From an uncultured Chlorobiaceae bacterium (GTDB lineage Bacteria; Bacteroidota; Chlorobiia; Chlorobiales; Chlorobiaceae): a stretch of 34,624 nucleotides of DNA. Position 1 is the first letter of the stretch; each line of letters begins with the position of its first letter. Shown in pieces: positions 15,876-17,859 of the stretch. The stretch is from assembly GCA_903915955.1 (NCBI GenBank), contig CAIWUU010000062.1:1-34624 (forward strand). Reading direction: 5' to 3'. The position numbers and the translations under genes are program-made. The notes beneath the pieces are model-generated. The model searched no databases. It worked only from the letters and a program-made list of their open reading frames with translations, and was not told the DNA's origin.

Positions 15876-15947
15876 TCCGTGGTAGCTCAATGGTAGAGCA
15901 TGCGACTGTTAATCGCAGGGTTGCAGGTTCGAGTCCTGCCCGCGGAG
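15876..15947 (+). tRNA. tRNA-Asn (anticodon GTT)
   Basis: A complete 72-nt cloverleaf. The acceptor TCCGTGG pairs with CCGCGGA with one G-T pair; D stem GCTC/GAGC; anticodon stem TGCGA/TCGCA with loop CTGTTAA, anticodon GTT; T stem GCAGG/CCTGC with loop TTCGAGT. The discriminator base is G, and CCA is not encoded. It lies on the plus strand just before the leuA leader. Confidence 0.95.
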
Positions 15948-15992
15948 CAAAAAAGAGGAGAGATTACCTTCATCTTTTGATTATTTGGGATC

Positions 15993-16079
15993 ATGCGTAC
16001 AACGAACAGAGACAACCTTCTGCTTACCCCTGGCCTGAAGCTATCGGGCTTTGGTACTTCTGGGGGAGCTGCTTTTTAG
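15993..16079 (+). CDS. leucine-rich leader peptide of leuA (putative)
   Basis: A 28-codon frame with five Leu codons; three are consecutive (CTT CTG CTT, 16017-16025) and two more are within the next six codons. It ends with TAG at 16077. Leu is far above chance for so short a frame, and the position before leuA fits a leucine-sensing leader. The ribosome binding site is weak (GGGA two bases before ATG), which is the main doubt. The stalling site covers the first strand of the RNA switch described for 16022-16143. Confidence 0.6.
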   Translation: MRTTNRDNLLLTPGLKLSGFGTSGGAAF

Positions 16080-16143
16080 TTCGTTTTCACCGTCAGAGAG
16101 AACATTGTTTAAAGCCACCACTCCCCCCAGGATTGGTGGCTTT
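16022..16143 (+). promoter_or_regulatory. candidate leucine transcription attenuator of leuA
   Basis: Three competing pairings are visible. Strand 1 (16022-16030, GCTTACCCC) pairs with strand 2 (16062-16069, GGGGGAGC) with one bulge. Strand 2, extended to 16060-16075 (CTGGGGGAG then GCTTT), can instead pair with strand 3 (16111-16130, AAAGC then CTCCCCCCAG). Strand 3 (16111-16120) also forms the terminator with strand 4 (16134-16143). A ribosome stalled on the Leu codons would cover strand 1, free strand 2 to take strand 3, and prevent the terminator. This is the layout of classical amino-acid attenuators. Confidence 0.65.
16111..16143 (+). terminator. attenuator terminator hairpin before leuA
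   Basis: A perfect 10-bp stem AAAGCCACCA/TGGTGGCTTT with a 13-nt loop, followed by a moderately T-rich tail (GTTCATTT). It ends 39 bp before the leuA start. Confidence 0.65.
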
Positions 16144-16182: not shown

Positions 16183-17859
16183 ATGATGAATTATAAAAAG
16201 TATGCGCCATATCCCCAGGTTGCCATCTCTGACAGGAGCTGGCCCGACAAAAGCATTACCAAAGCTCCGATATGGAGCAGCGTTGATCTGCGTGATGGCA
16301 ACCAGGCGCTTCCCGTACCAATGAGCGTCGACGAGAAAGTTGCCATGTTCCAGCTTCTTGTCTCGATTGGCTTCAAAGAGATAGAGGTTGGCTTTCCCTC
16401 AGCATCTGCAACGGAGTATGCCTTTGCCCGGCGTCTGATTGAGAGCAATCTCATTCCTGACGACGTCACCATCCAGGTGTTGACGCAGGCACGGGAACAC
16501 TTGATTCGCAAAACCTTTGATGCGGTCAAAGGGGCGAAACATGCCATTATTCACCTCTACAACTCAACATCGACCCTGCAGCGTGATGTGGTTTTCCGCA
16601 AAAACAGGGAGGAGATCAAGGCCATTGCCATCGAGGGGACAGAGCTTGTTCGTCGTCTCAAGGAAGAGTCAGGCAATACCGGCATCCGTTTTGAATACAG
16701 TCCTGAAAGCTTTACCGGCACCGAGCTCGACTATGCGCTTGATGTCTGTCATGCGGTTATGGATAGCTGGGGCGCATCGGTAGACAATAAAATTATCCTC
16801 AATCTGCCCTCAACGGTTGAGATGTCGCAACCCAATATTTATGCTGACCGGATTGAGTGGTTTTGCCGCAACATCAAGGCGAGGGATGCTGTGCTGATCA
16901 GTGTTCATGCCCATAACGACCGTGGCACGGCCGTGGCAACCGCTGAACTGGCCCTGCTGGCTGGTGCCGATCGCGTCGAGGGTGCACTCTTTGGCAATGG
17001 TGAGCGATGCGGCAACATGGATATTGTCACCATGGCGCTCAACCTCTTCACACAGGGCGTAGATCCTGAACTCGATTTTTCTGATCTGCCCCGCATCCGC
17101 GAAGTTTACCGGCGCTGCACCCGTATGGATATTCATCCCCGTCACCCCTACTCGGGAGAGCTGGTCTATACCGCTTTTTCCGGTTCGCATCAGGATGCCA
17201 TCAGTAAAGGGATGAAAGCGCAACCCACTTCACCCGGTGGTTTGTGGGCGGTACCCTATCTTCCCATTGATCCACAGGATGTTGGCTGCAACTATGAAGC
17301 CATTGTGCGTATCAACAGCCAGTCAGGCAAGGGGGGGGTCGCTTATGTGCTTGAGAAAGATTACGGTATCCAGATTCCGAAGTGGATGCAGCCCGATTTT
17401 GCTGAAGCAGTGCAAGGCGTAGCCGACACGACCGGCAATGAACTTGCACCAGATCAGATTTATGAGCTCTTCCATACTGAATATGTAAAGCTCATGGAGC
17501 CCTTTGCCATCAAAAAGTGCAAGATCAAATGGGACGACAGAGATCTTGAGCGAAATGACGAAGAGGCAACCGCAATCAGTTGTCTTGTACAGTCGAAGGA
17601 GAGAGAGCTCAGCTTTGAGGCGCAGGGCAACGGCCCGCTTGATGCCTTTGTCAAAGGATTTAGTAAAGAGAGCGGGCTCGATTTCACGATTGACGAATTC
17701 AGCGAGCATGCTATCGGCCGGAGCGCCAAAGCGCTGGCCGCAGCTTACATCAAGATCAGTTGCGCCGACGGGCGCATCTCTTTCGGCGCTGGTATCGACT
17801 CCAATATCAGCCTTGCATCAATCAAGGCAACGGTGAGCGCCCTGAACAGGCTTCAGTAA
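16183..17859 (+). CDS. leuA: 2-isopropylmalate synthase (type 2, long form)
   Basis: First committed step of leucine synthesis: condenses acetyl-CoA with 2-oxoisovalerate. The 558-residue protein has the metal-binding motif VDLRDGNQAL near the N-terminus, the HAHNDRG metal/catalytic motif, GNGERCGN, and a C-terminal LeuA dimer/regulatory domain (from about residue 440) that in this family confers leucine feedback inhibition. A good Shine-Dalgarno AAGGAG lies 8 bp before ATGATG. No other leu/ilv genes are adjacent. A leader peptide and hairpins upstream suggest attenuation. It ends 19 bp before the convergent small gene at 17879. Confidence 0.95.
   Translation: MMNYKKYAPYPQVAISDRSWPDKSITKAPIWSSVDLRDGNQALPVPMSVDEKVAMFQLLVSIGFKEIEVGFPSASATEYAFARRLIESNLIPDDVTIQVLTQAREHLIRKTFDAVKGAKHAIIHLYNSTSTLQRDVVFRKNREEIKAIAIEGTELVRRLKEESGNTGIRFEYSPESFTGTELDYALDVCHAVMDSWGASVDNKIILNLPSTVEMSQPNIYADRIEWFCRNIKARDAVLISVHAHNDRGTAVATAELALLAGADRVEGALFGNGERCGNMDIVTMALNLFTQGVDPELDFSDLPRIREVYRRCTRMDIHPRHPYSGELVYTAFSGSHQDAISKGMKAQPTSPGGLWAVPYLPIDPQDVGCNYEAIVRINSQSGKGGVAYVLEKDYGIQIPKWMQPDFAEAVQGVADTTGNELAPDQIYELFHTEYVKLMEPFAIKKCKIKWDDRDLERNDEEATAISCLVQSKERELSFEAQGNGPLDAFVKGFSKESGLDFTIDEFSEHAIGRSAKALAAAYIKISCADGRISFGAGIDSNISLASIKATVSALNRLQ

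What the first reader, a model, noticed from the sequence alone, without database searches (positions are those of the whole stretch)
15993..16143. Classical-looking leucine attenuator upstream of leuA in a green sulfur bacterium
A 28-codon peptide with five Leu, three of them consecutive, lies on top of strand 1 of a 1:2 / 2:3 / 3:4 RNA switch whose 3:4 form is a perfect 10-bp terminator-like hairpin before leuA. Strand 2:3 pairing uses both the loop and the 5' arm of the terminator (9 + 5 bp). Peptide-coupled leu attenuation is well known in proteobacteria; I do not recall it being described in this phylum.
Basis: partly seen in the sequence, partly recalled or inferred. Interest (0 to 1): 0.66.

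Follow-up and report, generated by a model that had tools for sequence, protein, structure and literature searches.

The report
Leucine attenuator before leuA in Chlorobiaceae
A short leucine-rich coding sequence and an RNA switch in front of the leucine-biosynthesis gene leuA almost certainly let green sulfur bacteria switch this gene on when ribosomes stall for lack of leucine, a classic control device whose presence in this group I could not find described in the papers available to me.

Summary
The leader ORF (15993-16079, MRTTNRDNLLLTPGLKLSGFGTSGGAAF*) and the 10-bp terminator-like hairpin 39 nt before leuA are real. A similar leader precedes leuA in 62 of 64 Chlorobiaceae genomes, plus 10 further loci (72 leaders). 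Leu makes up 27% of leader codons, against 7% in leuA. The rare Leu codon CTA makes up 16% of leader Leu codons, against 0.5% in coding genes. Terminator 3:4 and antiterminator 2:3 both score better than swapped partners across species. Strand 1 is better placed at leader codons 3-5 (AACGAAC), which pair with GTTCGTT at the stop codon (swap test p=0.0002; RNAalifold finds it unaided). In modelled nascent RNA, 2:3 forms with probability 0.92 when a ribosome sits on the Leu codons and 0.34 at the stop (stalled higher in 70 of 72 species). The permissive window ends where the Leu codons end. No experiment was done; no Rfam family matches; the most relevant earlier survey (Lopatovskaya 2010) could not be read. 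A second, Ile/Val/Leu-rich leader lies before ilvD.

The parts
15876..15948 (+). tRNA-Asn (GTT), directly upstream; probably co-transcribed with the leader in this genome (inference)
   Evidence: ARAGORN; Rfam tRNA 71.5 bits; 44 nt to the leader ATG, no TAnnTT[TG] element in between
15993..16079 (+). leucine-rich leader ORF, 28 codons, MRTTNRDNLLLTPGLKLSGFGTSGGAAF*, stop TAG
   Evidence: homologs in 62 of 64 Chlorobiaceae genomes and 10 more loci
16001..16007 (+). strand 1 as revised here (AACGAAC, leader codons 3-5), 5' side of helix P1
   Evidence: swap test (all p=0.0002, g1 p=0.0004); RNAalifold; pair counts
16017..16043 (+). control region: Leu codons CTT CTG CTT ... CTG ... CTA
   Evidence: CTA enrichment; ribosome-position scan
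16058..16082 (+). strand 2: end of the leader ORF, stop codon and 3 nt beyond; pairs with strand 3 (antiterminator); its GTTC also pairs with strand 1
   Evidence: duplex (-22.4); swap test; pair counts
16079..16085 (+). 3' side of P1 (GTTCGTT), overlapping the end of strand 2
16100..16132 (+). strand 3: GAAC ... AAAGC ... CTCCCCCCAGGA; overlaps the 5' arm and the loop of the terminator
16111..16143 (+). terminator-like hairpin 3:4 (AAAGCCACCA / TGGTGGCTTT) followed by a weak T tract
16183..17859 (+). leuA, 2-isopropylmalate synthase (558 aa), start 39 nt after the hairpin
   Evidence: NCBIfam PRK03739 / TIGR00970 over cut-off

Best explanation
This is a ribosome-mediated transcription attenuator of leuA. 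RNA polymerase makes the leader and a ribosome starts the Leu-rich peptide. If charged tRNA-Leu is scarce, the ribosome stalls at the Leu codons (9-17 in most relatives; 9-17 here too). It then covers or blocks strand 1 (codons 3-5, AACGAAC) but leaves strand 2 free, so strand 2 pairs with strand 3 (apical GTTC:GAAC, then the arm and loop of the terminator) and leuA is transcribed. If leucine is plentiful, the ribosome runs to the stop codon, which lies inside strand 2, and covers it; hairpin 3:4 then forms and transcription stops before leuA. If no ribosome is present, strand 1 pairs with GTTCGTT at the stop (P1) and disfavours 2:3. Shown by sequence: the leader, its conservation, the Leu and CTA enrichment, helices 3:4, 2:3 and P1. 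Modelled: the dependence of 2:3 on ribosome position. Inferred: that stalling, termination and the response to leucine occur in cells.
For: Leader in 62 of 64 Chlorobiaceae genomes, once per genome and always before leuA. Leu 26.7% of 1959 leader codons versus 7.3% in leuA. CTA 15.6% of leader Leu codons versus 0.5% of 3119 Leu codons in long ORFs and 0.5% of 665 in window genes. Own partners beat swapped partners for 2:3 (p<=0.0015) and 3:4 (p<=0.001) and for P1 (p=0.0002). RNAalifold returns P1 in genus g1 and the antiterminator in g2 unaided and the terminator in all. Where the stop codon has moved upstream of strand 2 (L024, L066, L067, L029, L043, L046, L049) the strand 2 RNA is still kept, so it is constrained as RNA. 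P(2:3) in nascent RNA: 0.92 stalled, 0.34 at stop, 0.52 without ribosome, higher when stalled than at stop in 70 of 72. P(2:3) >= 0.89 for A-site codons up to 16 in g1, falling to about 0.4 from codon 18-19; Leu codons lie mostly at 9-17. In g2 the matching figures are up to codon 15 and Leu codons mostly at 8-15, with more stray Leu codons later. Only 39 nt separate hairpin and leuA, so leuA transcripts must read through it.
Against: No expression data. In full-length RNA at equilibrium the terminator wins even with a stalled ribosome in g1 (P(3:4) 0.97), so the switch must be kinetic. Within the closest group the 2:3 and 3:4 swap tests are not significant (g1 p=0.20 and 0.32), and fully compensatory changes are few; P1 is not significant within g2 (p=0.16). 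The column-wise covariation score for 2:3 is within its shuffles (96 of 500 reach it). The U-tract is weak in this genome. Some relatives lost the leader but kept the hairpin (L009 and L010 by a shared deletion; L087 separately) and one lost everything (L070), so the regulation is not essential.
Confidence: 0.88

Rival explanations
1. The hairpin is a plain terminator for the upstream transcript (here tRNA-Asn), and leuA is transcribed from a separate promoter; the Leu-rich ORF is coincidental.
For: tRNA-Asn lies directly upstream in this genome, and two relatives (L009, L010) keep tRNA-Asn plus hairpin without the leader.
Against: Most relatives have no tRNA directly there but keep leader and hairpin; there is little room for a promoter between hairpin and leuA (39 nt); strands 2 and 3 and P1 are kept together; CTA and Leu enrichment.
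Confidence: 0.05
2. Ribosome arrest depends on the nascent peptide sequence (as in erm or tna leaders) rather than on charged tRNA-Leu.
For: The N-terminal part (NNLLLTLGLLL) is fairly well kept in amino acids.
Against: The peptide varies freely outside Leu, and the rare codon CTA is strongly enriched, which points to decoding of Leu codons; the target is leucine synthesis.
Confidence: 0.03
3. Leader translation regulates leuA by another route (translational coupling, an RNA-binding protein, or a pseudoknot as proposed for the actinobacterial LEU element), not by termination.
For: Actinobacterial leuA also has a leucine leader, with a proposed pseudoknot and no terminator (PMC1262725); U-tracts vary.
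Against: A hairpin with a T tract is present in all 72 leaders, with 98.2% of its cells paired in the 62 counted, and 2:3 competes directly with it; the leuA Shine-Dalgarno region is not in any conserved helix.
Confidence: 0.04

Closest known systems
Ribosome-mediated leucine/tryptophan attenuators of Proteobacteria (leuL, trpL; Rfam leader families)
   Same: Short ORF with a run of control codons including the rare Leu codon CUA (the E. coli parallel is from memory), mutually exclusive 2:3 and 3:4 hairpins, ribosome position as the sensor.
   Different: No Rfam leader family matches. Here strand 1 lies upstream of the control codons, and the stop codon lies inside strand 2, so the control codons sit in the loop of P1. 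From memory, in E. coli trpL strand 1 overlaps the Trp codons.
LEU element of actinobacterial leuA (Seliverstov 2005, PMC1262725)
   Same: Leu-codon run in an ORF upstream of leuA.
   Different: The LEU element has a pseudoknot whose base stem pairs Leu codons with the leuA Shine-Dalgarno box, with classical attenuation judged unlikely; here there is a terminator and a standard antiterminator.
Leu-rich short ORFs before leuA of alphaproteobacteria found in passing (for example L119, L122, L131)
   Same: Similar leuA type (56-57% identical) and short ORFs ending LLLLSCP/LLLLSSP.
   Different: No obvious sequence similarity in the leader; the structure was not examined, and the covariance model was run only within this phylum.

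Membership tests
Ribosome-mediated transcription attenuator (leader-peptide type) | Short ORF with clustered codons of the pathway's amino acid, conserved in relatives | tested here: met
   66 of 72 leaders have a Leu run of 3 or more; Leu 26.7% of codons
Ribosome-mediated transcription attenuator (leader-peptide type) | Intrinsic terminator between leader ORF and first structural gene | tested here: met
   hairpin 98.2% paired cells; 5 or more T in 8 nt in 69 of 72; weak T tract in this genome. Termination itself not shown
Ribosome-mediated transcription attenuator (leader-peptide type) | Antiterminator that excludes the terminator and is preserved across species | tested here: met
   own versus swapped p<=0.0015 (all) and 0.02 (g2); not significant within g1 (p=0.20)
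Ribosome-mediated transcription attenuator (leader-peptide type) | A strand 1 that is masked by a ribosome stalled at the control codons | tested here: met
   P1; masking strand 1 alone raises P(2:3) from 0.52 to 0.78, but masking Leu codons 9-13 alone does the same
Ribosome-mediated transcription attenuator (leader-peptide type) | Expression of the gene rises when the amino acid or its charged tRNA is limiting | not testable with these tools
   needs cells
Rfam leader families (Leu, Trp, His, Phe and others) | Match at the gathering score | tested here: not met
   best leader match Phe_leader 14.4 bits, cut-off 55
Actinobacterial LEU element | Base stem pairing Leu codons with the leuA Shine-Dalgarno box, pseudoknot, no terminator | tested here: not met
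   terminator present; RNAalifold shows no stem with the Leu codons, but the alignment ends before the leuA Shine-Dalgarno box and pseudoknots were not searched; description of the element from PMC1262725

The most novel reading that the evidence does not exclude
Green sulfur bacteria evolved leader-peptide attenuation of branched-chain amino acid synthesis on their own (leuA, and separately ilvD), with a strand layout in which strand 1 lies just upstream of the control codons and the stop codon lies inside strand 2, so that one helix around the whole leader ORF acts as the default-off lock.
Probability: 0.4. Interest if true: 0.55.

Novelty: new member of a known kind. Interest (0 to 1): 0.42.

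Why it matters
Leader-peptide attenuation is documented mainly in Proteobacteria and Actinobacteria, with a bacillar hisS case (PMC2965389). A family-wide case in green sulfur bacteria, with a second leader before ilvD, widens its range and suggests either deep ancestry or repeated origin. It also gives a simple, testable account of how these phototrophs control leucine synthesis, and 72 natural variants, plus natural deletions that keep the terminator, with which to test it.

Tried and rejected
Rfam families: no match. MFE z-score of the single sequence: uninformative. Codon-column shuffles as a coding test within Leu columns: only codons 11 and 16 come out high (33 and 20 of 500 shuffles reach the observed value), weak because the columns are too conserved. 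Other copies of the element in the same genomes: none. trpE and hisG upstream regions of this genome: no leader seen. A plain terminator for tRNA-Asn: rejected because most relatives lack the tRNA directly there. Promoter motif TAnnTT[TG] upstream: 47 of 72 versus 28 expected, suggestive only. Literature searches for earlier reports in Chlorobi: none in the open library; Lopatovskaya 2010 not held.

Full report
WHAT IS THERE. The window belongs to a genome of the family Chlorobiaceae: its closest relatives by leuA are uncultured Chlorobiaceae and Chlorobium. The leader ORF runs from 15993 to 16079 and encodes MRTTNRDNLLLTPGLKLSGFGTSGGAAF*. A hairpin AAAGCCACCA/TGGTGGCTTT lies at 16111-16143, and leuA (2-isopropylmalate synthase) starts at 16183. 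A tRNA-Asn gene ends 44 nt before the leader.

CONSERVATION. A whole-genome search of 296 genomes of the phylum found a close leuA in the genomes of this family, at 74% identity or more over the best stretch. Upstream DNA was taken for 64 of them, and 62 have the leader. Ten further leaders came from named contigs, giving 72. A covariance model of the element finds it once per genome in the family (44 family genomes have exactly one match) and essentially nowhere else in the phylum sample (one weak hit at E=8e-4).

LEADER PEPTIDE. Leu is 26.7% of 1959 leader codons and 7.3% in leuA. Sixty-six of 72 leaders have a run of three or more Leu. CTA is 15.6% of leader Leu codons overall (25.8% in g2, 12.2% in g1) against 0.5% in long ORFs of the same loci and 0.5% in window genes, roughly a thirty-fold enrichment. 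These sequences are related, so the ratio is not a count of independent events.

HELICES. I compared the duplex energy of each species' own strands with strands swapped between species. Terminator 3:4: -13.9 versus -13.4, p<=0.001. Antiterminator 2:3: -17.0 versus -16.1, p<=0.0015. In g1 alone neither is significant; in g2 both are. RNAalifold finds P1 in g1 and the antiterminator in g2 without being told. Examples of paired change: L074 AACGAAT:ATTCGTT; L029 AACACAAA:TTTGTGTT; L034 and L036 CCAGAAG/TTCTG versus CCGGAAG/TTCCG; g2 GTCAAC or GTCAGC:GTTGAC. Swap tests do not correct for relatedness, so the p values are guides.

RNA-LEVEL CONSTRAINT. In seven genomes the stop codon lies before strand 2 (L024, L066, L067, L029, L043, L046, L049), yet the strand 2 sequence is still kept although it is no longer translated.

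MECHANISM MODEL. I folded nascent RNA up to the end of strand 3, with the ribosome-covered bases barred from pairing (15 nt before the P site to 12 nt after the A site, an assumption). P(2:3) averages 0.92 with a ribosome at the first Leu pair, 0.34 at the stop and 0.52 with none; stalled exceeds stop in 70 of 72 species. Moving the ribosome along the ORF, P(2:3) stays at 0.89 or above for A-site codons 2-16 in g1, is 0.72 at codon 17 and about 0.4 from codon 18-19, and Leu codons lie mostly at 9-17. In g2 it stays at 0.88 or above up to codon 15, with Leu codons mostly at 8-15 but some later. Masking strand 1 alone raises P(2:3) from 0.52 to 0.78; masking Leu codons 9-13 alone has the same effect, so the model does not prove that P1 is the only lock. 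In the complete RNA at equilibrium the terminator wins in g1 whatever the ribosome does, so the outcome must be set during transcription.

LOSSES. L009 and L010 share one deletion that removed leader and antiterminator but left tRNA-Asn and the hairpin. L087 (a Chlorobium chlorochromatii MAG) lost the leader separately and also kept the hairpin. L070 has lost everything. The device is therefore dispensable, and the kept hairpin is unexplained.

LITERATURE. No Rfam family matches. The actinobacterial LEU element before leuA differs. Naville and Gautheret 2010 state that, to their knowledge, no leader-peptide systems had been shown outside Proteobacteria and Actinobacteria before their bacillar hisS case. 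I found no report for green sulfur bacteria in the open library. Lopatovskaya 2010, a large survey of attenuators, is not held, so an earlier prediction cannot be excluded.

VERDICT. Observation partly confirmed (leader, 2:3 and 3:4 yes; 1:2 no), interpretation supported, and the element filed as a new family of a known kind.

Noticed in passing
L154:1560-1890 (G000:C56, upstream of ilvD); relatives L163-L191: A second leader of the attenuator kind: conserved ORF rich in Ile/Val/Leu ending for example ...DRIVTPVIIVQTHILVL* (L163), followed by CCCAAGT...GGCTTCGGGAACGGC and a GGG...CCC hairpin with T tract before ilvD. RNAalifold support for its helices is weak. In this genome the ORF would need a TTG or another start.
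   Followed up: partly
L009, L010, L087, L070 upstream of leuA: Natural losses of the leader; in L009/L010 (shared deletion) and in L087 (separate) the terminator-like hairpin is kept in front of leuA, which is unexplained.
   Followed up: partly
window 15876-15992; L003, L009, L010: tRNA-Asn sits directly before the leader or hairpin in four close genomes, in place of the region where relatives have a promoter-like TAnnTTTG element, as if leuA had come under the tRNA promoter.
   Followed up: partly
L117, L119, L122, L124, L131 (alphaproteobacterial leuA loci): Short ORFs ending LLLLSCP, LLLLSSP or GRLLLSCP just upstream of a related leuA; possibly leucine leaders of their own, structure not examined.
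   Followed up: no
alignment A1 columns 111, 179, 199: One position is shared by three strands: strand 3 A or G at column 179 pairs with U or C both in strand 2 (column 111) and in strand 4 (column 199).
   Followed up: no
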